Source of the DNA: Novosphingobium sp.
GTDB lineage: Bacteria > Pseudomonadota > Alphaproteobacteria > Sphingomonadales > Sphingomonadaceae
Direction of reading: 5' to 3'
DNA: 64,000 bases
Assembly: GCF_024642085.1 (NCBI RefSeq)
Contig: NZ_JAHEBV010000063.1
Location: 1-64,000, forward strand
Part shown: positions 13,792 through 61,914 of the stretch, piece by piece
Position numbering within the stretch: the stretch's first letter is position 1
How the letters are laid out: each line of letters opens with the position of its first letter
The notes under the pieces: generated by a model
What the model saw: only the letters and a program-made list of their open reading frames with translations
What the model was told of the DNA's origin: nothing
Database searches by the model: none
Program-made: the position numbers and the translations under genes

Positions 13792-13878
13792 GCCCAGATG
13801 GCGGAATTGGTAGACGCACCAGCTTCAGGTGCTGGCGCTCGCAAGGGCGTGGAGGTTCGAGTCCTCTTCTGGGCACCA
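13792..13878 (+). tRNA. tRNA-Leu (CAG anticodon), includes encoded CCA
   Basis: GCCCAGA...TCTGGGC acceptor pairing, long variable arm, TTCAGGT anticodon loop, GGTTCGAGTCC T-arm, discriminator A + CCA. Confidence 0.95.
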
Positions 13879-13881
13879 TTT
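13854..13881 (+). repeat. attL-type repeat (native tRNA 3' end)
   Basis: ggttcgagTcctcttctgggcaccattt. Confidence 0.9.
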
Positions 13882-14055: not shown

Positions 14056-14910
14056 ATGAGCCTCAATGTGCAGGAGATCAAAGGCTTCCGGGCTGCCGAC
14101 AAGTCGTACAAGAAATACGACTCGCGGGGGCTGCTGCTCTTGGTGAAGCCGAACGGCTCCAAACTCTGGTATTTCAAGTACCGCTTCGGCGGGAAGGAAA
14201 AGAAGCTGCCCATCGGCGCGTTCCCAGAGGTCAGCTTGTCGCAAGCGCGCGAGCTTCGCGATCGAGCGCGGCTAAAGGTTTCGGATGGCATCGATCCGAT
14301 GCTGGAGCGGAAGCGCAAGAAGGCGAGGATCAAGCTCGGCGCTGAGAATATCCCATATTACCGTGGGCAAGACGTCACCGGTAGGTTTTTCATCGATAGC
14401 GCCTCACCAAATTTCATCACTGAGGACGCTTTCAACCGTCAGTACATGAAACGATCGCATTTGAAGAAGGGTGATGTCCTTCTATCGATCATTGGGACAA
14501 TCGGCGAACTAAGCCTCGTCGATAGCGAGAACGATGCGACCTGCAGTTGCAAGCTTGCAATATTCAGACCGCACTCAATTGAGCCGGAGTTCTTGGCGGC
14601 ATTTTTACAGTCCGTGCATGGAAACAACCAGATCAGGCGATTGACGCGCGGCGCCGTTCAGCAAAGTTTCCTACTTGAAGATGTCAATCAACTCTTGATC
14701 CCAGAGTTTTCAGACGACTTTAGAAACGCCGTGGTCGAAGCTGTGCAGGCTGCGCGTGTGCCCGTCGTGTCTGGGAAGGCGCAGTGCGGGATGCAGCGTA
14801 CGCGCGGGAGTGAATCTCGGACCAGCTCGATTGGGGCCGGGTGTTTACGCTTGGTAATGTGCGGGACGGTGACAAGTGCGCAACATCGGCGTCGTGCCAA
14901 GCCACGATGA
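14056..14910 (+). pseudogene. Chimeric ORF: tyrosine-integrase Arm domain (DUF4102-like) fused in frame to type I restriction HsdS specificity fragment
   Basis: MSLNVQEIKGFRAADKSYKKYDSRGLLLLVKPNGSKLWYFKYRFGGKEKKLPIGAFPEVSLSQARELRDRAR (integrase) then NIPYYRGQDVTG...LKKGDVLLSIIGTIGELSLV...RGAVQQSFLLEDVNQLLIP (HsdS); integrase catalytic domain absent. Confidence 0.85.
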
Positions 14911-15437: not shown

Positions 15438-15510
15438 GGATCGGCGACAAAGCCGTTCGGATCCTATTGCCCGGCCTGACGCCGGATATTTGTGTCTTAT
15501 GACGACGCAT

Positions 15511-15594
15511 ATGAAGACCGCGATAGTAACAGGAATTTCTGGCCAGAATGGTGTTTGCCTGCCTGGGCTGATCGCATTAAGATCGAAAATCTGA
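15511..15594 (+). pseudogene. GDP-mannose 4,6-dehydratase-like N-terminal fragment
   Basis: MKTAIVTGISGQNGVCLPGLI resembles Gmd N-terminus (TGISGQDGxYLAxLL); stops after 27 codons. Confidence 0.55.
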
Positions 15595-15833: not shown

Positions 15834-18617
15834 ATGGGTATCCGGTCCCGCGCCCAAAACTTTGAGGACGTCATGCTATGGCGGGCCCTTGGTGACGTGG
15901 AGGCCGGTTTCTTCATTGACGTCGGGGCGCAGCATCCGATCAAGGATTCGGTCAGCAAGATATTTTCGGAACATGGCTGGCGCGGTATCCATATCGAACC
16001 GACGCCCGAATTTTCGGACATGTTGCGTGCGGACCGTCCTAACGAAACGGTTATTGCCGCAGTCGTCTCGGAAAAGCACGGGGCAGTCACTTTTTTCAAA
16101 ATTGCCGACACAGGTCTTTCCACCGGACGTCGCGACATCGCGGAAGCTCACGCTGCCGCCGGGCACGTATATCAGGAAATCACTGTCCCGACGATTTCAC
16201 TCGACGATCTTCTGGCGTTTGCCCCATCGGGTGACATCCACTGGTTGAAGATTGACGTCGAGGGGATGGAACAGGAGGTGCTTGGAAGCTGGCGCACGTC
16301 TCAACGGCGACCATGGATCGTCGTAATAGAAGCCAATTTCCCCGGCAGCCAGACGCCCAGCCATGAAGCCTGGGAAGAACTCATCCTCGCCAAAGGCTAT
16401 CATTTTGTTTATTATGATGGACTCAATCGCTTCTACATCAACGATGCGCATAGCGCGTTGGACGATCATTTTGCGCTCCCCCCTAATATTTTCGACGGGT
16501 TTCAGTTCGATCCTCTTTCCGATCATGCGATTATTGTCCAGCAGTTGCACCAAGCGGATATCGAGGTGCTTGAAAGGACGGTAGCATCACTAGAAAAGCG
16601 CCTTGTGGACATGCGCTCGGAAACAGAAGCGCTCATCGAACAATCTCGAATCGATGCCGAGCACATTATCGCCGATGTGCGACACACGGCAGATGCCGGA
16701 CTGGCCGATCTGCGGGAGCGGGAGCGGGATGGTGCGATCGCAGCGGCAGCGGATAAGGCTCGCCTAGAACAGCAGATTGCAGCACTGCGTGCTACGTCGG
16801 AAAGCGACCTTGCTAAGGCTTCGGCCCGTGAGGCTGAATTGACGAGCCTGCTTGACAAACTTCGGGCGGTTGCCGCCGCCGAAACGAGCAACAGGCTGGA
16901 AGCTAGCAAGCAAGAAGCTATGCTGCGAGCCGATCTTCAAGGCAAGCTGAATGCCGCGGTTCAGCGCGAAGCCGATTTGCTCGCTGCTGGTGAGCGTGAT
17001 GTCCGGCGTTTTACGCACGAGGCGGATGTAAAAGTTGCGGCGCTGGAACGTGATCTCGCCGCCGCTCGCGATCGGATCGAGAGTTTGCGCGACGCAATGG
17101 CCAGGCGAGAGCGGGAACTATTCGCTCAGCGCGAGGAGGCGGTCAATCGCGCTGTTGCGATAGAAGCAGCTCGCCTTGAAACACGTCTGGCTGAAGAACG
17201 CATTGAATTACTGACATCAGAAGACCGCGTCGCTGCAGCCTTAGCGCAGGTGAATAAGACACAGCGTGCTCTGGACGGGGTGCGTGAGGCTGCGGTAATG
17301 CAGGAACGCGCAATTCGGGATCAAATGCACCAAGCGCTGGAACGGTTTCGGGCTAAAGCGGAACACGATGCAGAACAGCTGCGCGGGGATACCGAACGCC
17401 AGCGGGCTGAAAGTCAGCGTTTGCTGGTCGATGCTCATGACCGGATTGTGGCCGCCGAACATTTGGTAACGGAGCGGGCGCTATCTCATCATGCCGAGAT
17501 ACTGGAGCAGGCCGAGGCATTTCGAGGTGAAATTGCCCGCGTCACTGACGCGGCGATCGAGCGAGAAAGATCAGCGCAGCTCCGGATTGTCGAATTAGAG
17601 CGGCAAGAGCAAGAAACGGCCCTAGCGGCGCGTGCGGAAAAGGAAGCGTTTGCGACGCGACTTAGCCATAGTGAAGATCGCATGCGTTCTGTCATCAACA
17701 GCCGAAGCTGGATCCTTGCCACTCCCATTCGTTGGATCCTACGTGAGAAGATAATTGATCAACCTTCGCCCGAGCCGGCACTGGCTTCGGTCTTTAGCGC
17801 CGTTTCTTTGCCAATCGGCCATGCCGAACCCCAGGAAGTTATGACCATTACATTTCAGCCTTCTCAGTCCGTTGTTGACCTGCTTTCGCTCCCGGCACCT
17901 GATTTTGTCCATCGAAGCTTCCAACTATTGTTGGGCCGCGCGCCTTCATCATCTGAACAAAAAGCCCGTGAACGGTCACTGTGTCTGGGATGCGGCCGGA
18001 TCCCAATGATCGCAGAGATTCATCAGTCGGCCGAGGCCGACAGTCATCGTGGCATGCAACGTAAGCAAGGCAGCGATACGGAATTTATTGAATGGCTCTA
18101 CCAGAGCTATTTGGGGCGCAGGGCGGACCCCCAGGGTCTCGCGCATTATGGGAATTTGATTCAACGCAAGAGCCGTGCAGCAGTTGAGGCTGATGTCGCT
18201 GCATCCATCGAGGCTGTCGAACATCGGTCATTACCCTATGAACTGGAGCGTCTCGTTAAAATTCATCAATATAGCCGGCAATGGTGGCGCTGGTTCGGTC
18301 GGAGACGTTGGGAACAGCGGATCAGAAATATTGAAAGCGAAGCGAACGCGTTTCGCATCGGTCGTCACGACGCTCGCGACCAGAGTCAAATTATGCAGAC
18401 AATGGACGCGATGCGCGAGCAGATTCAAGGCGGACAGGCCAACATGGATTCCACCACTGCGCAGGCAAGCTTTGATCGTCACTTGGAAAGACAGCGGGCG
18501 GAGCAGACAGCAGCTGCACCAACGCTACACAAGATCGATGCTGGACTCCTGGGGCCTCAGGCGAGGCAGATATTGCAGCGTATGCGAACGCCCGGTGTGG
18601 AAGGGGGGAACGCCTGA
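15834..18617 (+). CDS. FkbM-family methyltransferase with long coiled coil and tandem DUF4214-like C-terminal modules
   Basis: N-term AQNFEDVMLWRAL...FFIDVGAQHP...GIHIEPTP...WLKIDVEGMEQEVLG; about 380 aa charged heptad-rich region; FVHRSFQLLLGRAPSSSEQ and FIEWLYQSYLGRRADPQGLAHYGNLI. Confidence 0.88.
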   Translation: MGIRSRAQNFEDVMLWRALGDVEAGFFIDVGAQHPIKDSVSKIFSEHGWRGIHIEPTPEFSDMLRADRPNETVIAAVVSEKHGAVTFFKIADTGLSTGRRDIAEAHAAAGHVYQEITVPTISLDDLLAFAPSGDIHWLKIDVEGMEQEVLGSWRTSQRRPWIVVIEANFPGSQTPSHEAWEELILAKGYHFVYYDGLNRFYINDAHSALDDHFALPPNIFDGFQFDPLSDHAIIVQQLHQADIEVLERTVASLEKRLVDMRSETEALIEQSRIDAEHIIADVRHTADAGLADLRERERDGAIAAAADKARLEQQIAALRATSESDLAKASAREAELTSLLDKLRAVAAAETSNRLEASKQEAMLRADLQGKLNAAVQREADLLAAGERDVRRFTHEADVKVAALERDLAAARDRIESLRDAMARRERELFAQREEAVNRAVAIEAARLETRLAEERIELLTSEDRVAAALAQVNKTQRALDGVREAAVMQERAIRDQMHQALERFRAKAEHDAEQLRGDTERQRAESQRLLVDAHDRIVAAEHLVTERALSHHAEILEQAEAFRGEIARVTDAAIERERSAQLRIVELERQEQETALAARAEKEAFATRLSHSEDRMRSVINSRSWILATPIRWILREKIIDQPSPEPALASVFSAVSLPIGHAEPQEVMTITFQPSQSVVDLLSLPAPDFVHRSFQLLLGRAPSSSEQKARERSLCLGCGRIPMIAEIHQSAEADSHRGMQRKQGSDTEFIEWLYQSYLGRRADPQGLAHYGNLIQRKSRAAVEADVAASIEAVEHRSLPYELERLVKIHQYSRQWWRWFGRRRWEQRIRNIESEANAFRIGRHDARDQSQIMQTMDAMREQIQGGQANMDSTTAQASFDRHLERQRAEQTAAAPTLHKIDAGLLGPQARQILQRMRTPGVEGGNA

Positions 18618-21600
18618 TGCGTCTGGTCGTCGATCTACAGGGTGCGCAGGGATCCAACCGCAATCGGGGCATTGGCCGCTATTGTCTGTCTCTGACGCAG
18701 GGACTGGCCCGGTTGAGGGGCGAGCACGAGGTTATCGTTGTGCTGAGTGCCCTGTTCCCGGATACCATCGAACCTCTGCGCCGGTCGCTTAGGGACGTAT
18801 TGCCGCCCGAGGCAATCCGGATCATGCATCTGGCAGGTCCGGTTCACGGCGCCGATCCTCAGTGCGATGCACGGCGCGAGGCTGCCGAACTAATGCGGGA
18901 GCACTTCCTTGCCAGCCTCAACCCAGATTTCGTGCTTATCACCTCGCTTTTTGAGGGGCTGGGGGACGATGTCGTTTCGAGCATCGGACGGTTCACCACC
19001 CGCGTACCGACTGCGACCGTTTTGTATGACCTCATTCCGCTTATCAACAGCGCAATCTATCTCAAGAATTCCGTGCTGGCCAAATGGTACGAACGCAAGC
19101 TGGCTAGTCTTCGCGATTCAGACCTGTTGCTAGCCATTTCTCAATCGTCACGCCAAGAGGCAATCGAGTGGCTTGGGACCGAGCGGGATGAAGCGGTCAA
19201 CATCTCGACCGCAGCTGAAGATTATTTCACACCGGCTTCGGTCAGCGCCAAGCGCCGGGCGGAGCTAGGCAAGACTTACGGGCTGGTGCGTCCGTTTGTC
19301 ATGTATACGGGTGGCATCGACCATCGTAAGAATATTGAAGGGCTGATCGAGGCTTATGCCATGTTGTCTCCTGCCCTCCGCCGTGCACATCAGCTTGCGA
19401 TCGTATGTTCCATCCAGCCGGCTGACCGTGATCGGCTGACAGCGCTGGCAGCTGAATATGGGCTTGGCGACGATGAGTTTATTCTGACCGGCTACATTCC
19501 TGAAGATGATCTTCTCGCTTGCTACCGGGCGTGCAAGATGTTTGTTTTCCCGTCATGGCATGAAGGGTTCGGCCTGCCCGCCCTAGAGGCCATGCGGTGC
19601 GGCCGTGCCGTGATCGCTAGCGACTGCTCCAGCCTCCCCGAAGTTATCGGCAACAGCAAGGCACTGTTCGATCCCCATGACATCGCCGCAATCAGCCGGG
19701 CGATCGGCAACGTGCTCACGGACGATGCGTTGCGGGAAAACCTGGAACAGCATGGGCTGGAGCAGGCGAAGCGGTTCAGCTGGGATTTGACTGCTCAGGC
19801 GGCGTGGGACGCGATTCTGGCCGCGCATCGGCGATATGCCATCAGTCCGCCGCGTCTTTGTGTCTCATCTCGAAAACCCAGGCTCGCCTATGTCTCACCG
19901 CTTCCGCCCGAAGCCAGCGGGATCAGTGATTACAGCGCCGAACTGCTTCCCGAGCTTGCCCGACATTATCGCATTGACGTGATTGTATGCCAGGAAAGCG
20001 TCAGCGATCCGGCGATCGTCGCCAACTACCCGCTCCGGTCGATCGACTGGTTTAGGCAGCATGCGCATGGCTTCGACCGAATCCTGTATCATTTCGGCAA
20101 TTCTCATTTTCATTCGCATATGTTCGACCTGATGCGCCAAAATCCCGGCATGGTCGTGCTGCACGATTTCTTCCTGTCTGGCATTGTCGCCCACCGCGAC
20201 GTATATGACGAAGAGCCCGGCGGGTGGGCGCGCGCATTGTTCGAAACGCATGGCTGGCCTGCAGTCGTTCATCGGTTCAAGGCTGCGGACACGGCCGATG
20301 TGGTTTGGGCCTATCCCGCTAACATAGCAGTGCTGCAGCATGCGTTAGGCTTGATTGTCCACGCCGATTTCTCTCGTCAACTTGCGCAGACATACTATGG
20401 CGTCGGTGTGGGTGACGACTGGGCGCTGATCCCGCATTTGCGTCAGACTGCTGCCGGTCTTGACCGTGGTGCCGCCCGTAAGGTTTTAGGGCTGGGCCAG
20501 GACGATTTCGTGGTGTGCAGCTTCGGCATTCTTGGCCCGATGAAGATGAACGACCGGCTGTTGTCGGCATGGCTCGAGAGTCCGCTTGCAGACAATCCTA
20601 ACTGTCACCTGATTTTTGTCGGCCAGAATAACCCTGGCACTTATGGTGAGGACTTGGAACGCCGCATTAGGTCAGGCCGATCAGCGGGCAGGATTGAAAT
20701 CACGGGATGGGCTGATCAGACCAGCTTTCGTCAATGGCTTGCCGCTTCCGATCTCGGCGTCCAGTTGCGGACCCTTTCACGTGGGGAGACGTCCGGGACT
20801 GTACTCGACTGCATGAACGTGGGTCTGCCCACCATCGTCAATGCCAATGGCTCGATGGCTGAACTGGACGCTGACGCAGTGTGGATGATACCGGATGATT
20901 TCAGCGATGATGATCTGATCAAGGCGTTGTCAACGCTTCATGCCGACGCTACCCGACGTCGGGAAATGGGCAATCACGCCCGTGCACGTATCGCCGATCA
21001 CCATAATCCACGCAACTGCGCAGCGGATTATGCCAGAGCCATCGAAGCGGCCTATGCGCGGGCTGAGACCGGCCAGACCGGCCTTGAAAGGGTACTGGCG
21101 GAAAGCGACAGCGCATTGGGCGAGAATGACTGGCTCAACCTTTTGCATGCGATGGAACGCAATGCTCCTCCGGCGCTACGCCGCAAGAGATTGCTGGTCG
21201 ACATTTCCGAATTGGTCCAGCGGGATTGGGGTTCGGGCATCCAACGTGTAGTCCGCTCAATCCTGAACCATTGGCTGCTCAACCCGCCGGCTGACTATAT
21301 CGTCGAGCCTGTCTATGCGGAACCTAACAGACCTGGCTACCGCTATGCTCGGCAATTCACCAGCCGGATGCTCGACATCTGGCCTTTCTGGTGTGAGGAC
21401 GAAATGGTCGAACCGGTGACCGGCGACATTTTCGTCGGCCTCGACCTGCAGCCTGCCATCGTGCCGCAACAACAGCCTCTGTTGCAGGAATGGCGCCGAA
21501 TGGGAGTAAAGGTCTGCTTCATTATTTACGATCTGCTGCCGGTGATTGCGCCCGAATATTTCTTCCCCGGCGCCCGGCCCAGCCATCATGCATGGCTGGC

Positions 21601-22816
21601 GACAGTCTCCGAGTTTGACGGCGTAGTCTGCATTTCGCGCGCCGTCGCGGACGAGTATCGCGAATGGCTCGACCATTACGGCCCTGATCGGATCACCCCG
21701 CTGGAAATAGACTGGTTTCATCTGGGCTGTGACCCCGAAATGGGACCTGCCGGCTCAGACGCCCTGCCTGCGGAAGCGGACGTCCTACTAGCCCGGCTCC
21801 GTAAAACTCCTTCCTTCCTGTCAGTCGCGACAGTCGAACCGCGCAAGGGGTTTCGTCAGACGCTCGACGCGATGGAGATGTTGTGGGCCAAGGGAGTTGA
21901 TGCCAACTTCGTTATTGTTGGCAAGCCGGGCTGGATGATGGACGATTTCATCGCCCGGCTGCAAACCCACCCAGAACTTGATGAACGCCTCTTCTGGCTT
22001 CAAGGCATCAACGACGACTATCTTTTTGCGGTCTATGGCGCCTGCCGTTATCTGATCGCGGCAAGCCAGGGAGAGGGGTTTGGACTGCCGCTGATCGAAG
22101 CAGCTCGCTATAAGCTGCCGGTGCTAGCGCGCGATATTCCGGTATTTCGCGAAGTGGCGGGCGATGCCGCAAGCTACTTCCCCAATTCCAAAGATCCTGC
22201 CGTTCTGGCTCGGGCTATCGAAACCCTGCTCAAGCCCAAAGAGGGCGTGGGAAAGCCACGGCGGATAAAGTGGCTGACTTGGGCGCAAAGCGCCGATGAT
22301 CTCCTTGCCTGCATCTTGCGCATCAACCAGCCTTATCAGCGCTGGATGCCCGATGGCGTCCAGCGCTTCTGGGGCAGTGATCATCGGTTACTGTCGCAGG
22401 TCGGCATAGCCAACGGCATACAGATGCGCACCAACGCAAAGGCCGGTTTCCTTGCATATGGCCACTATCTGCCGCTTGAAGCCGGTTCTTGGACAATCAG
22501 GGCAGAAGGGGAAACGACTCGCCTCGACGGTTCGGAGTTCTTTGACATCGTCTCGGACGGGGGGGGCAATGTGCATTTTACTGCTCCATTGACGCGCATG
22601 GGCGACCGATGGGTCGTTGAGGGCGACTACGTCATGGCCGAACGGGCTGAAAGTGTAGAAATTCGGCTTTGGGTCGCAGACAGCAGCGACTTGTCACTGA
22701 CAGGAATAAGCCTGACCCCTCGCGCAGCCGAAGCTGTCGATGACGGAAAGTTGCTCATGGAGACCAGCCTGAATTATCGAGTAGAAATAAAAACAAGTCG
22801 TGCGCCCGCTGTTTAG
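18617..22816 (+). CDS. Multidomain glycosyltransferase: three GT4-like modules plus C-terminal beta-rich domain
   Basis: Module 1 [18 protein letters not shown]...[21 protein letters not shown]; module 2 from about 19870 ([27 protein letters not shown]); module 3 from about 21180 ([24 protein letters not shown]...[33 protein letters not shown]); tail [22 protein letters not shown]; TGATG overlap with upstream gene. Confidence 0.9.
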   Translation: [1399 protein letters not shown]

Positions 22817-22972: not shown

Positions 22973-23109
22973 CACTTTCGAATTGAGGGCATGGCGTGGC
23001 AGATACTCCCGACAACTCGGATGCAAAACTCAAAACTTTTGCATCAGATTGAAGCTTGAGGAAAACCTGCCCCTTCCCTGATGCAAAAATCTCATGCACG
23101 ATTTCGATC

Positions 23110-23505
23110 ATGATCTACGGCTATGCGCGCGTCTCAACCATTGGCCAGGACTTGGCCCAACAGATTGCCCAGCCCACCGCTGGCGGGTTTGTCAAAATCT
23201 ACCGCGAGAAGATCGGCGGAGCGACGGCCGAGCGGCCCCAGCTCAAGCGCGCGATCGGCGCGCTTGACGATGGTAACGTGGTGATGGTGACTGCAACAGA
23301 TCACCTTGCCCGCAATCCTCGCGACCTGTTGAGCATTCTGCATGCGGTGAAAGGGGCCGGGGTTGGCTTCCTCTGGCTTGCCGGGTCGATGGTGGATATC
23401 CGCGGTGCATCGCGGTGCGCCCCTCTTCTCGTAAATCGAAGACAGCAAAGGGTTAAAATGCGGGCATTGCATAGGAGAAATGAATGTCCGATCCCGGCCT
23501 CATAA
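23110..23505 (+). pseudogene. Truncated serine recombinase / resolvase N-terminal domain
   Basis: MIYGYARVSTIGQDLAQQIAQ...IYREKIGGATAERPQLKRAIGALDDGNVVMVTATDHLARNPRDLLSILHAVKGAGVGF; homology ends after about 95 aa. Confidence 0.8.
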
Positions 23506-24397: not shown

Positions 24398-24425
24398 GGT
24401 TCGAGCCCTCTTCTGGGCACCATTT
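24398..24425 (+). repeat. attR-type repeat (displaced tRNA 3' end)
   Basis: ggttcgagCcctcttctgggcaccattt; single mismatch to 13854-13881, 17 bp from the alpha-galactosidase stop. Confidence 0.9.
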
Positions 24426-32552: not shown

Positions 32553-34118
32553 TTACTCACTATCTGTCGGATCCTTGACAATTCGTTCGAGCTGCTGGCG
32601 CCAATTGATCCAGCGTTGGTTCTCCGGATCGCGCTGAATCAGGCGGCCAGCTACGGGTAGCATTGCCCGGGCCGTCGCGCGGGCTTCTTCCGGCTTGCCA
32701 ATCTCCGCATAGGCCCGGGCAAGCCCGATTGCCGCCTGCATCTGGGCCTGCAATGCACGCACATCACCTGGAAAGGCGGTGGGCAGGGCGGAAACAAGTT
32801 TGTGCTGCTTGTGGCGCAGTTCCAACGCCGCCTGCGCTTTGCCCGTCTGCATCAATGCATCCGCCTGCCACGCAATGTTATTGGCATAGTCCAGTTGCGA
32901 CTGGATATTGGCCTTGTCTTTGCGCGCGATGTTACCGGCCATCGTTGATGCCGCTTCGCAATGCTGGACCGCCACGTCGGCTTCCACCGGTGGCACCAGC
33001 GCCAGCGCGCACAGGTTTACTTCGGCAGAGGCGACCTCCCTTTGCCAATCGAGCTTATCTGGCTGAAGCGCAACCAATTGCTTTGCCAGTACAAGGTATC
33101 GATCCCAGTGGGGCTGGGCCCTGGCTTTATCCTGGCTGATAAACGGCAGATAACCGACCCAGTATTCGCTTTGCGCATGATTAAATATGCGATCCGGATT
33201 CTTCGGCTCACGCTGCAGCTGGCTGTTGGTTACGCGAAATGCCATGTCGAACTTGCTTTGGGCATCATCGGTTTGCCCTGCAGCATAATCGTCTTCGCCC
33301 ATGGCGGTGAGCAGACGTGCACGGCGTTCAAGCATGTCTGCTGGCAAATCGTCCAGGCTGTCACCGGCATAATGATCCATTGCCTTGCGATTGACGGCGT
33401 CCATGATTTCCAGACGGCCTACGCCTTTCAGACGATCACGCAGGTCGGTCAGCATGAACTCCACCATTCCTTCGGCATCGGCGCGCTGGCGCCGTGCTTC
33501 GGCGCGCTGACGCAAAGCAACAATCAGCAAGCTGGCCAGCACTACACTAAGCAGCATGGTCGCCGCCGTGACGGCCATCACACGTCGCTGCCGGGCTTGG
33601 GCATCGCGCTGAACCAGCCGGTCAAGCGGCAAGGCGGAAAGCCCCGCCACGACCTTGAGCAAGGCAAGGCGGCGGCCATCGCCCACTTTGCGAAAGTCGG
33701 CAGCAAGTGGCTCGAAAGCACGGATGCCATGGCTCAACAGCGGTTCGGGGAAACTGGCGCTGGGCTCACCCGTAATCAGGGCCGCCAAAACCGGCCGGTC
33801 GGGGTGCTGATCGCGAAACAGCGCAATTTCCTGCGCCACCCAGCGGCTTTTGGCAGCGGCCGGGCTGCAGACCACGATCAAGGCATCGGACGCTTCAAGC
33901 GCTTGCTTGACCTGTGCCGACAGGTCCGGCCCTGCGGCCAGTTCCGCGCGGTCGATGAACACTGGTGCAAGCCGCCGCGGCGCAGCGGGTCCATCGCCAG
34001 GCAAAACAAACCGTTCCAGGCGGCGATGCAGCCAGGTCGCAAATCCATCATCGGCGTGGCTATAGCTGATGAACGCCCGGTAGCGCGTTTCGGCCGGCAC
34101 CCCGTCAGGCCGTATCAT
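32553..34118 (-). CDS. TIR-domain protein with transmembrane helix and TPR-like C-terminus
   Basis: YRAFISYSHADDGFATWLHRRLERF...VFIDRAELAAG...SDALIVVCSPAAAKSRWVAQEI; TM VMAVTAATMLLSVVLASLLIVAL; helical repeats follow. Confidence 0.85.
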   Translation of the reverse strand: MIRPDGVPAETRYRAFISYSHADDGFATWLHRRLERFVLPGDGPAAPRRLAPVFIDRAELAAGPDLSAQVKQALEASDALIVVCSPAAAKSRWVAQEIALFRDQHPDRPVLAALITGEPSASFPEPLLSHGIRAFEPLAADFRKVGDGRRLALLKVVAGLSALPLDRLVQRDAQARQRRVMAVTAATMLLSVVLASLLIVALRQRAEARRQRADAEGMVEFMLTDLRDRLKGVGRLEIMDAVNRKAMDHYAGDSLDDLPADMLERRARLLTAMGEDDYAAGQTDDAQSKFDMAFRVTNSQLQREPKNPDRIFNHAQSEYWVGYLPFISQDKARAQPHWDRYLVLAKQLVALQPDKLDWQREVASAEVNLCALALVPPVEADVAVQHCEAASTMAGNIARKDKANIQSQLDYANNIAWQADALMQTGKAQAALELRHKQHKLVSALPTAFPGDVRALQAQMQAAIGLARAYAEIGKPEEARATARAMLPVAGRLIQRDPENQRWINWRQQLERIVKDPTDSE

Positions 34119-34386
34119 GTTGCCCCCTTGGCATTTTTGGACCCATGCCTTGGTGCCGGATCGGCGCGACCTTGGCAATGGTTTCGGTTTGAGCGCGGCG
34201 AAGCAGCGCTACGGGCAGACCGCTTGTTCGAAAAATCCGGACCTTGTGGCCGGTGTGGCGCTTTGGCTACGCTGCGGACAAGTTCTAAGCGTTCGATTAA
34301 AACGGGTTGTCAACGGCTGCGGACAATGTTCTATTCCCCTGGCAACGACCCGCGAAAAGCGACGGGCAAGTTAGGAGAGAGGGCTG

Positions 34387-58601: not shown

Positions 58602-58836
58602 GCGTCGGGATATGGAGGTTTATGGTTTGTTCTGCAAGGTGGCTGCGACGCGTCCCGGGCAGGGACGCGTAGGCATTTCGCACCTGCACCATCGGTCTTG
58701 CTTTGCGACCTGTTCTAAGAGATATTTTGACCGCAGGGCCGCCGAATCAGACGCGTAAAAAAGACGCGTACACCAGGGATTTTGGGTGCGGGCGGCCAAT
58801 GATGGACCGCTGCTGTGCGCCCGTTGCGGGGGTACG

Positions 58837-61800
58837 ATGAACGTTCCGGACATCTTCATATCCTATAATCGAGAGGATACTGCCTTCGCCCAGGCCTATG
58901 CCGACGCGTTTACGGACGCGGGGCTTGAAGTCTGGTGGGATGCAACGCTGCGTTCGGGAGAGGATTACGACGCAGTCACCGAAGACGCTCTGCGCAAGTC
59001 CAAGGCCGTAGTCGTGCTGTGGTCGCCGCGTTCGGTCAATTCGCGCTGGGTCCGAGCCGAAGCAACAATCGCCGACCGCGGCCAGCGGCTGATGCCGGTA
59101 ATGATCGAGGATTGCGAACGTCCGGTGATGTTCGAGCTCAAACAGACTACTGATCTGGCGGCGTGGAGAGGCGATACCACCGATCCGCGGTGGACGGCAT
59201 TCATCTCGGATGTGAAAGGCCGCATTGGCCAGTCACCCGGCGATGCGCCTCGCCAGAGCCGTCCGCTTGCGCCCCTCGAACCGGCTTCCCGCACAATGGC
59301 CGCAACGACTGCGCCGGAATCCGCGTTGAGCGGGGATGATCGGGCGGCGGTAGCTGTACTGCCCATTGCGTGCCGAGCAGGCAATGCCGAGCTGGAACTG
59401 ATGGCGGAGGATCTGACCGAGGATTTGACCCGCGAACTGGCCTACAACCGCTATGTTCGGGTCATTGCCGCAGGGACCATGGCAGCCTGGCGGGGCAAGG
59501 CGGTTGATCACAAGAGCCTGGGGCGGCAGCTGGGTGCACGCTATCTGGTCGATGGAAAGTTGCAAGCCAGTGGAGGTGGCATGCGGCTGACCGCTCAACT
59601 GGTTGATGCCGGTACAGGCAATGTGCTGTGGTCCAATCGCATGGTCTCCACCCCGGAAGACCCCGATTTCAATCACGATGCCTTGCCGGTAGCTGTCGCA
59701 CTGCAGCTGGCCGAACAAATCGTGACGCGTGAGGAATCGCAGGCTATGGCCCGCCGGGCGCCCTTCTCCGCAACTGATCGGATCCTGCGCGCGTCGGCGT
59801 TGCTGCGCCGCGACGATGAGACGAGCGCGCAAGGTGCGATTGACGAGGCGCGACAGGCTATTGAACAGGAACCGGAAAGCGGGCTGGCCCATGCCATGCT
59901 CGCCTCGGGACTTGCCGCCCTTGCGGAAAGCCGCGGCGCGGCACCAAATGAAGAGCAGATTCGCGAAATCCAGACCACCACGCGCCAAGCCATGCGGCTC
60001 GATGGGAACAACCCGACAGTCCTGATGGCGCTGGCCGCAGCCTATCAGGGCCTGGGCGAATATGAGATATGCCGACGTTTGGCGCGCCGCACGGTCGATC
60101 TCTGGCCAAGCTCGCCCACATCCTATCGCATGCTGGGCGATTCCCGGCGAATGCTGGGCCGTCCAGCCGAGGCGATCGAGGCTTACCGAAAATGGGAGCG
60201 GCTGGCCCCCTATGATAGCAGCCGACATATTGCGCTGACGAACCTCGGTACCTGCCTGCTGCTTGAAGGACAGGGGGACGAGGCCGAAGCCGTGCTCGAT
60301 CAGGCGTTGATGCTTAACCCGGAATACCAGATCGCACTTGAATGGAAGGCAATCGTCGCCGAGCATCTGGGCAGACATGCTGATGCAATCGCCGCCGTTC
60401 GGCAGATCCGTTCAAGCGAAGCTGCGATGCCGCTGGACCGTCATGTCTGGCAGATCGAACGCTATGAACACTTGCGCGAGCGTACGGCCGCCCATGCCGC
60501 GACGTTGCGGCGTTTGTGGGCCGAAGCGGGCGGCGAACCGGGCGTGCAAGTCCGGCCGGAGGAACTGAAGGAAGCCGCTGCGCCCGTGCCGCTTGCTGAA
60601 CCGGCAAAAGCTGCAATGTCGCCTGAAGAAGCCGGTTTGGTCGATGTCCTTGATGATTATGCTACGACTTTTCCTGCAGAGGATGCCGTACCAGATGACG
60701 CACCCGAACCGGCGGACGTTCTTATGTTCGCGTCGGCCCCGGCTGCGACCCAGGTTGTCGTGCCAGAACCTTTCGTGGTCATGTCGCCAAGGACCGGGCC
60801 GAAGGCTGCAAATGATGATGGCGCTGCTGTAGCAGTTCCGCCACGCCGATCAGCCTGGCCGCGAATTGCCGGAGTCGTCGGCGTGCTCGCGGTTGTAGGG
60901 ACAGGCGCTGCGGCCATGCTGGGCGGCAACGGAAAGTCGGCGTCGGCGGATTCCAGTCCTACCTTCGCGGTCGCCAAACTTCCGGCTGGCTCTGCGATAG
61001 CGCCCGCCGCGGCAATCGTGCCGGCGGCTGGCATGGAAGGTGAAAGCGAGCAGATCGAACCGATCGGCCAGGCGCTGACATCGTTGATCACCGCCAGCCG
61101 CAGAGCCAGACGACCAACTGCCGAAGTGGCGGCGCTGGAAGGGGGATTGCAAGCAATGGCACCGCTGCTTGCCCGGATGAAGGCAACGCCAGGCGACGAG
61201 ATGGTATCGGGCCAATTGCGCGACATTGCGATCAATCTGGTCAGTCCGCAGGGAACTGCGCTTTCAGCCGATGCCAATCGCTGGATTGCCGAGCAGGAGC
61301 GTCAGGCCGCTGCAGCCAGCCACAAGCTTTCGCCAGATGGCGCAGCCAGCGTCGACCGGATGCTGAACCGGGCCCGCGGCCCGCGCGCTGAACTTGCCGC
61401 AGCGGTCGGCAATGCAGGCCAGGCCCCGGATGCACTGTCGGCGATTACCGCCGGGCAAAAAGCTCTTGCAGCCTATGGCCGGGTTCGCGCCGTTTCAGTG
61501 GCAGGCACAATCGGCGTGGCCAGCGCCAAGACTGCTGTGGCGGTGGCTGCTGCTGATACGGCAAAGGCGCAAAACCGCCTGTCGTCGATGCGTGCCGAAC
61601 TCGGTAATGTGCGCAGCGAACTGGCCCGGCTGTCAAGCCAGGCGGCAGGCATGACCCAAGTCGAGAAACCCGGCCTGTTCGCCTCTGGCGCCAAACGGCA
61701 GTCACACAAGCTGCGCAAGGATAATGCCGACCGGGTCCGAGCTTTGCTGGCTGAGGCTGATCAGATTGTCGGAGCTTCAAACGGCGTGACCGATCCGGGG

Positions 61801-61914
61801 ATGCTTGCATCCAGCGTTTCGCGCCTCAATGGCCTGAAAAGCCAGGCCAGTGGCCTGGTCGCGTCCTCCAATGCGGCGTTGAAAAGCGCGGCTGCTGCGC
61901 CTGACGACAAATAA
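58837..61914 (+). CDS. TIR-domain protein with TolB/FlgO-like, TPR and C-terminal TM/helical regions
   Basis: DIFISYNREDTAFAQAYADAFTDAGLEVWWDATL...AVVVLWSPRSVNSRWVRAEATIA; AVLPIACRAGNAELELMAEDLTEDLTRELAYNRYVRVIAAGTMAAW; TPRs; TM IAGVVGVLAVVGTGAAAML. Confidence 0.87.
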   Translation: MNVPDIFISYNREDTAFAQAYADAFTDAGLEVWWDATLRSGEDYDAVTEDALRKSKAVVVLWSPRSVNSRWVRAEATIADRGQRLMPVMIEDCERPVMFELKQTTDLAAWRGDTTDPRWTAFISDVKGRIGQSPGDAPRQSRPLAPLEPASRTMAATTAPESALSGDDRAAVAVLPIACRAGNAELELMAEDLTEDLTRELAYNRYVRVIAAGTMAAWRGKAVDHKSLGRQLGARYLVDGKLQASGGGMRLTAQLVDAGTGNVLWSNRMVSTPEDPDFNHDALPVAVALQLAEQIVTREESQAMARRAPFSATDRILRASALLRRDDETSAQGAIDEARQAIEQEPESGLAHAMLASGLAALAESRGAAPNEEQIREIQTTTRQAMRLDGNNPTVLMALAAAYQGLGEYEICRRLARRTVDLWPSSPTSYRMLGDSRRMLGRPAEAIEAYRKWERLAPYDSSRHIALTNLGTCLLLEGQGDEAEAVLDQALMLNPEYQIALEWKAIVAEHLGRHADAIAAVRQIRSSEAAMPLDRHVWQIERYEHLRERTAAHAATLRRLWAEAGGEPGVQVRPEELKEAAAPVPLAEPAKAAMSPEEAGLVDVLDDYATTFPAEDAVPDDAPEPADVLMFASAPAATQVVVPEPFVVMSPRTGPKAANDDGAAVAVPPRRSAWPRIAGVVGVLAVVGTGAAAMLGGNGKSASADSSPTFAVAKLPAGSAIAPAAAIVPAAGMEGESEQIEPIGQALTSLITASRRARRPTAEVAALEGGLQAMAPLLARMKATPGDEMVSGQLRDIAINLVSPQGTALSADANRWIAEQERQAAAASHKLSPDGAASVDRMLNRARGPRAELAAAVGNAGQAPDALSAITAGQKALAAYGRVRAVSVAGTIGVASAKTAVAVAAADTAKAQNRLSSMRAELGNVRSELARLSSQAAGMTQVEKPGLFASGAKRQSHKLRKDNADRVRALLAEADQIVGASNGVTDPGMLASSVSRLNGLKSQASGLVASSNAALKSAAAAPDDK

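What the first reader, a model, noticed from the sequence alone, without database searches (positions are those of the whole stretch)
15834..22816. Candidate two-gene polysaccharide polymerase plus 'molecular ruler' terminator system
Seen: an FkbM methyltransferase domain, then about 380 residues of coiled-coil-like sequence, then two DUF4214-like modules. This is coupled by a TGATG overlap to a triple-GT4 protein. Established: in E. coli O8/O9a, WbdD carries a chain-capping methyltransferase and a coiled coil whose length sets O-antigen size, and it recruits the multidomain mannosyltransferase WbdA. Inference: the same logic here with an FkbM-type cap and no recognisable kinase domain. A fully extended coil of that length would be near 57 nm (383 x 0.15 nm) as an upper bound. 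No Wzm/Wzt exporter is visible in the island.
Basis: partly seen in the sequence, partly recalled or inferred. Interest (0 to 1): 0.9.

Follow-up and report, generated by a model that had tools for sequence, protein, structure and literature searches.

The report
Probable capsule length-setting enzyme pair
Two neighbouring bacterial genes look like the enzyme that builds a long sugar chain for the cell's capsule and the partner, a methyl-capping enzyme on a long rod, that may stop the chain at a set length; how capsules of this type get their length is an open question.

Summary
In detail: an FkbM methyltransferase, about 390 mostly helical residues, and two DUF4214-type modules form one 927-aa protein. 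It overlaps by 1 bp a 1,399-aa protein with three GT4 domains. The pair sits on a 10.6-kb tRNA-Leu island without an exporter. However, the same draft genome carries a Kps capsule locus (kpsC/S, D, E, M, T) followed by gmd and a GDP-D-rhamnose-type reductase, and no other multi-GT4 protein. In 80 related loci the FkbM-coil gene usually precedes a multi-GT4 gene. Two classes appear: Wzm/Wzt with a Wzt_C cap-binding domain, where the FkbM protein has a short coil and no DUF4214 (0/30); and Kps capsule loci, with long coil and DUF4214 (18/21). The window pair has the Kps signature. Best reading: polymerase plus methyl-capping terminator for an ABC-exported, D-rhamnose-containing capsule, the coil acting as spacer or ruler. 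Architecture and linkage are shown by computation; capping, ruler action and interaction are inferred. It is a new variant of the WbdD/WbdA principle; coiled-coil methyltransferases in E. coli group 3 kps loci were mentioned in passing in 2026.

The parts
13792..13878 (+). tRNA-Leu (CAG), integration site of the island
   Evidence: ARAGORN
13854..13881 (+). left att-like repeat: 3' end of tRNA-Leu
   Evidence: 27/28 identical to 24398-24425
14056..14910 (+). integrase N-terminal fragment (Arm-DNA-bind_3) run into unrelated sequence; decayed integrase
   Evidence: Pfam PF13356 E 6e-23 over residues 9-88 only
15508..15573 (+). remnant of the 5' end of a GDP-mannose 4,6-dehydratase (gmd) gene, about 22 codons
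   Evidence: tblastn E 2e-6 with the gmd of locus L036
15834..18617 (+). FkbM methyltransferase - long helix - DUF4214 protein (927 aa): proposed chain terminator and spacer
15918..16406 (+). FkbM (Methyltransf_21) domain, residues 29-191; motifs DVGA(29), EP(55), LKIDVEG(138) present
16521..17696 (+). long helical, coiled-coil-like region, residues 230-621
17871..18224 (+). two DUF4214-type helical modules, residues 680-797
18549..18584 (+). conserved C-terminal tail LGPQARQILQRM, residues 906-917
   Evidence: motif in 31 of 61 relatives against 3.6 expected in shuffles
18617..22816 (+). triple GT4 protein (1,399 aa): proposed polymerase
   Evidence: Pfam Glycos_transf_1 three stretches, E 4e-68; EX7E at 316 and 1153
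22307..22735 (+). C-terminal beta-sandwich of the polymerase (residues about 1231-1373), CBM6/35/4-like predicted fold, not in Pfam
23056..23505 (+). resolvase N-terminal fragment
   Evidence: Pfam PF00239 E 5e-19
24398..24425 (+). right att-like repeat

Best explanation
The two genes encode the K-specific machinery of an ABC-transporter-dependent (Kps-type) capsule built from GDP-mannose/GDP-D-rhamnose. The triple GT4 protein polymerises the chain in the cytoplasm on the KpsC/KpsS primer. The FkbM protein O-methylates the non-reducing end (3-O-methyl-rhamnose or -mannose would be the precedent), which stops growth. Its long helix places the capping site far from the polymerase, which would dock at its C-terminal part, so that only chains long enough to span the helix are capped. 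Export then goes through KpsMTED encoded on another contig. Shown by computation: the domains, the conserved gene pairing and fusions, the linkage to exporter classes, and the exporter and sugar-nucleotide genes in the same genome. Inferred: capping activity, ruler function, docking, and cooperation of the island pair with the distant kps locus.
For: Pairing: 55 of 82 FkbM-coil genes have a GT4 gene directly downstream, 42 within 10 bp, 4 fused, in loci from Proteobacteria to Bacillota and cyanobacteria. Exporter linkage: 30 loci have Wzm plus an ABC protein with Wzt_C (PF14524 in 14/14 tested) and more than 20 have Kps genes. GMD is in 61/80 loci. Window class: DUF4214-type region in 18/21 Kps-linked FkbM proteins, 0/30 Wzt_C-linked (p 5e-11); the window has it. 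Own genome: KpsC/S, KpsD, KpsE (TIGR01010), KpsM, short KpsT and Gmd, plus a reductase whose best PDB matches are GDP-6-deoxy-D-mannose reductases; the window protein is the only multi-GT4 protein found. Order survey: all 10 genomes with a close P0001 relative have KpsC/S-family genes against 115 of 391 others (p 7e-6). Precedents: WbdD (PMC3482155, PMC11231755); 3-O-methyl-Rha/Man caps on a D-rhamnose O antigen (PMC9445017).
Against: No glycan or enzyme data. The pair is on a decayed integrative island, apart from the kps locus, in a 65-contig draft. The coiled-coil prediction is broken and AlphaFold confidence in the helix is low. KpsT has no Wzt_C domain, so a cap is not obviously needed for export; I know of no Kps capsule reported to be capped. 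The class contrast rests on few independent events in the tree (only 1 supported independent pair). The 80 loci are the best matches to P0001, so they are not a random sample.
Confidence: 0.55

Rival explanations
1. The FkbM domain decorates internal sugars or side branches of the capsule and the long helix plus DUF4214 is only a scaffold that holds enzymes together at the membrane; chain length is set by the balance of synthesis and export.
For: FkbM enzymes modify many substrates (own knowledge); the Kps class lacks a cap-reading Wzt_C domain; the coil is predicted as broken; coil-length variation was judged 'not expected to be critical' in E. coli group 3 loci (PMC13171606).
Against: The same FkbM clade pairs with Wzt_C exporters, whose characterised cases read terminal caps (PMC9445017), with the same downstream multi-GT4 gene; one methyltransferase per polymerase is the usual pattern.
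Confidence: 0.25
2. The pair makes an LPS O antigen (D-rhamnan) exported by a Wzm/Wzt pair, as in the 30 Wzt_C loci.
For: 30 related loci have this layout.
Against: No Wzt_C protein in this genome; the window FkbM protein carries DUF4214 and a long helix, seen in 0 of 30 Wzt_C loci; the polymerase carries the CBM-like domain seen in 0 of 30.
Confidence: 0.08
3. The island is a decaying relic: the two genes are intact by chance or recent arrival and do not work with the distant kps locus.
For: Integrase and resolvase are fragments and a gmd gene is reduced to about 22 codons; kpsT is followed directly by gmd with no room for the pair.
Against: 2,326 codons without a stop and intact motifs; the kps locus has no other multi-GT4 polymerase; a split pair/kps arrangement is seen again in genome G059.
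Confidence: 0.12

Closest known systems
WbdD/WbdA of E. coli O8 and O9a (K. pneumoniae O5, O3)
   Same: Methyltransferase at one end of an extended coil, multidomain polymerase, ABC export, GDP-sugar substrate; O8 WbdD is a plain methyltransferase (PMC3482155, PMC11231755).
   Different: FkbM-type methyltransferase, DUF4214 modules, Kps capsule exporter with short KpsT, no Wzt_C, a CBM-like domain on the polymerase; helix of about 390 residues against a 249-residue C-terminal part in O9a WbdD (PMC3482155).
Putative coiled-coil methyltransferases of E. coli group 3 kps clusters
   Same: Putative methyltransferase with variable-length coiled coil inside a KpsMTED capsule locus (one sentence in PMC13171606).
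   Different: The cited text names no FkbM domain, DUF4214 or length role; no E. coli plasmid record matched the window protein, though chromosomal E. coli loci were not searched with it.
Aquifex aeolicus O antigen / WzmWzt
   Same: D-rhamnose-rich chain ending in 3-O-methyl-Rha or -Man, read by the Wzt cap-binding domain (PMC9445017); model for the Wzt_C-linked FkbM loci.
   Different: The terminator enzyme was not named in the passages read; this window's genome has no Wzt_C.
Single-protein or split terminators of K. pneumoniae O12, O4, O7
   Same: Coiled-coil protein carrying a terminator, with polymerase modules in the same or separate proteins (PMC11231755).
   Different: Other terminating chemistry (Kdo or methylphosphate) and O-antigen export.

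Membership tests
WbdD-type chain terminator with coiled-coil ruler | terminating enzyme domain N-terminal to a long coiled coil | tested here: met
   FkbM 29-191 then helix 230-621, heptad z 5.6; coil prediction broken
WbdD-type chain terminator with coiled-coil ruler | methylates or otherwise caps the non-reducing end | not testable with these tools
   needs enzyme assay or glycan analysis
WbdD-type chain terminator with coiled-coil ruler | C-terminal part recruits the polymerase | tested here: inconclusive
   conserved tail motif in 31/61 relatives, chosen after inspection, and four FkbM-GT4 fusions; no binding test
WbdD-type chain terminator with coiled-coil ruler | coil length sets chain length | not testable with these tools
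   Kps-linked proteins have longer extensions, median 571 against 221 aa, but without phylogenetic independence
WbdD/Wzt capping-export system | exporter ATPase with cap-binding Wzt_C domain | tested here: not met
   no PF14524 in the genome; KpsT is 219 aa
ABC-dependent (Kps, group 2/3 type) capsule system | KpsC/S, KpsD, KpsE, KpsM, KpsT present | tested here: met
   on contig C50, not on the island
ABC-dependent (Kps, group 2/3 type) capsule system | K-specific genes lie within the kps locus | tested here: not met
   the pair lies on another contig (C15); in several relatives it lies within the kps locus (e.g. L055, L057, L126)
WbdA-type multidomain polymerase | two or more GT4 modules in one chain | tested here: met
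   three GT4 stretches; EX7E in modules 1 and 3

The most novel reading that the evidence does not exclude
Kps-type capsules of many bacteria have a dedicated chain terminator and ruler (FkbM, long coil, DUF4214), and the job that Wzt_C does in O-antigen systems, reading the chain or cap, has moved to a CBM-like domain on the polymerase and to DUF4214 contacts with the exporter (one relative's KpsT itself carries DUF4214).
Probability: 0.2. Interest if true: 0.85.

Novelty: new variant of a known kind. Interest (0 to 1): 0.6.

Why it matters
A 2025 review of capsule length control (PMC12220298) states that it is unknown whether ABC-transporter-dependent capsule chains are made at uncontrolled length or whether an unidentified factor controls them. 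This pair, and the Kps-linked class found with it, gives a concrete candidate factor with a clear prediction: a terminal methyl sugar, and chain length that follows helix length. It also shows two exporter-specific versions of one terminator family, a natural comparison for asking what the cap is for when the exporter has no cap-binding domain.

Tried and rejected
Homology of the polymerase's C-terminal domain to Wzt_C: profile comparison negative. Pfam hits for that domain: none meaningful. First C-terminal tail pattern was mis-spaced and gave 6/62; corrected. PDB search with P0001: no sequence match. Foldseek of the whole P0001 model returned essentially methyltransferase domains. Test of coil length against exporter class on the tree: too few independent switches. 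Heptad-multiple indels: no clear rule; close pairs differ by 14, 22, 47 or 130 residues in the coil. Papers joining FkbM, Wzt and coiled coil: none in the library. The 2019 census of chain terminators (Mann et al., cited in PMC11231755) was not available, so whether it lists FkbM terminators could not be checked.

Full report
The observation. Pfam finds an FkbM methyltransferase (residues 29-191, E 8e-26) and DUF4214 (745-797, E 1e-9) in the first and three GT4 stretches in the second. A second DUF4214-like module lies just before the Pfam hit (pairwise E 0.006). AlphaFold with 38 sequences gives a confident methyltransferase, helices at 230-515 and 521-621 at low to moderate confidence, a disordered linker, and two confident helical DUF4214 modules. 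So the helix is well supported as a prediction, but a continuous coiled coil is not shown.

The last part of the GT4 protein (about 1231-1373) is a separate domain. It matches nothing in Pfam. Its model is a beta sandwich with core pLDDT near 97, and Foldseek's best PDB matches are CBM6, CBM35, CBM4 and CBM16 modules (best E 1e-5, but modest TM-scores of 0.4-0.5 by query length). It is not related by profile to Wzt_C.

Surroundings. The pair lies on an element inserted at tRNA-Leu(CAG): the 3' end of the tRNA is repeated 27/28 at 24398-24425. Integrase and resolvase are fragments, and about 22 codons of a gmd gene remain upstream of the pair. One same-genus genome (G029) has a contig of the same size and content as a Novosphingobium rosa record (L042), so the window is probably from Novosphingobium (inference). 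Elsewhere in the same genome, contig C50 holds two KpsC/S-family genes, KpsD, KpsE, KpsM, a 219-aa KpsT, Gmd and a reductase. The reductase's best PDB matches are GDP-6-deoxy-D-mannose reductases, the enzyme that makes GDP-D-rhamnose. Next comes an IS3-type transposase. No Wzt_C protein was found in the genome. The window GT4 protein is the only multi-GT4 protein found in the genome.

Relatives. A scan of genome contigs found 524 relatives; the best 80 loci were kept. 55 of 82 FkbM genes have the GT4 ORF within 150 bp downstream, 42 within 10 bp; eight more end at a contig edge and four are fused to GT4 modules. Two main exporter classes appear. In 30 loci the exporter is Wzm plus an ABC protein with Wzt_C (14/14 confirmed by Pfam). 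In more than 20 it is Kps-type, usually with a short KpsT. DUF4214-type modules occur in 18 of 21 Kps-linked FkbM proteins and in none of 30 Wzt_C-linked ones (p 5e-11); the exceptions are short or cut-off ORFs. The CBM-like domain sits on the GT4 protein in 10 of 23 Kps loci and 0 of 30 Wzt_C loci (p 6e-5). The part after the methyltransferase is longer in Kps-linked proteins: median 571 against 221 aa. The window pair has all the Kps-class marks. In one Kps locus (L045) KpsT itself carries DUF4214 above the Pfam cut-off.

Limits of these contrasts. The loci are the best matches to the window protein, and two Kps rows are the same organism. On a tree of the FkbM domain the exporter classes cluster, and only one well-supported independent switch is available. 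The p values therefore describe the sample and do not show repeated co-evolution. In a broader sample of 401 genomes of the order, 10 have a close relative of P0001 and all 10 have KpsC/S-family genes, against 115 of 391 others (p 7e-6). In several of these the two are linked within about 10-20 kb (G193, G202, G260, G427).

C-terminal tail. 31 of 61 longer relatives, of both classes, end with a motif like LSPRARQIYxDL about 5-14 residues from the C terminus, against 3.6 in shuffled tails (maximum 10) and 21 of 343 other stretches. I chose the pattern after looking at the tails, so the enrichment is partly circular, and six of seven further ORFs from new genomes lacked it. It is a candidate docking or membrane site, as in WbdD, where the C-terminal part recruits WbdA (PMC3482155).

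Mechanism. WbdD caps mannan chains and its coil sets their length (PMC11231755, PMC3482155); the O8 version is a plain methyltransferase, so the missing kinase is no objection. D-rhamnose O antigens ending in 3-O-methyl sugars are known and are read by Wzt_C (PMC9445017). The same FkbM family with the same partner gene next to Wzt_C exporters makes methyl capping the simplest activity for it. In the Kps class the exporter has no cap reader, so capping there may serve only to end growth, or another module may read the chain. The step from capping to a ruler is inference.

Novelty. The principle is known. Whitfield and colleagues call the strategy widespread (PMC11231755, citing a 2019 census that I could not read and that may include FkbM terminators). 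A 2026 E. coli study mentions, in one sentence, variable coiled-coil regions in putative methyltransferases of many group 3 kps clusters (PMC13171606). What I did not find described is the FkbM/DUF4214 version tied to Kps capsules, the CBM-like domain on the polymerase, and the two-class split by exporter. A 2025 review lists capsule length control in ABC-dependent systems as open (PMC12220298).

Noticed in passing
L045:7333-8400: KpsT-like ABC protein (355 aa) with a C-terminal DUF4214 domain above the Pfam cut-off; may link the exporter to the terminator.
   Followed up: partly
alignment A2; e.g. L068:15224-16294, L102:14896-17049, L109:64-2787: The CBM-like beta-sandwich without a Pfam entry also ends several SAM methyltransferase-like and other proteins in related polysaccharide loci, including Wzt_C loci.
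   Followed up: partly
L041:9968, L062:524, L108:9995, L043:9866: FkbM, coil and GT4 modules in one polypeptide (1,937, 1,503, 1,032 and 872 aa).
   Followed up: partly
window 14356-14760: The truncated integrase ORF continues into sequence that looks like a type I restriction specificity (HsdS-like) subunit; judged by eye only.
   Followed up: no
L031:11547-12356 (own contig C50): IS3-type transposase just downstream of the reductase at the end of the own kps locus.
   Followed up: partly
window 32553-34178 (-) and 58786-61914 (+): Two proteins whose N-termini read like TIR-type signalling domains (FISYSHADDGFA..., FISYNREDTAFA...); judged by eye only.
   Followed up: no
L051, L052, L066, L106: FkbM-coil genes next to Wzm/ABC genes, most with multi-GT4 genes, on contigs labelled Sporotomaculum, Peptococcaceae or Bacillota, suggesting spread beyond typical LPS producers.
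   Followed up: no
L018 and L023 (genome G059): Another genome of the genus with the FkbM-coil gene on one contig and a kps locus with DUF4214 and triple-GT4 genes on another.
   Followed up: partly
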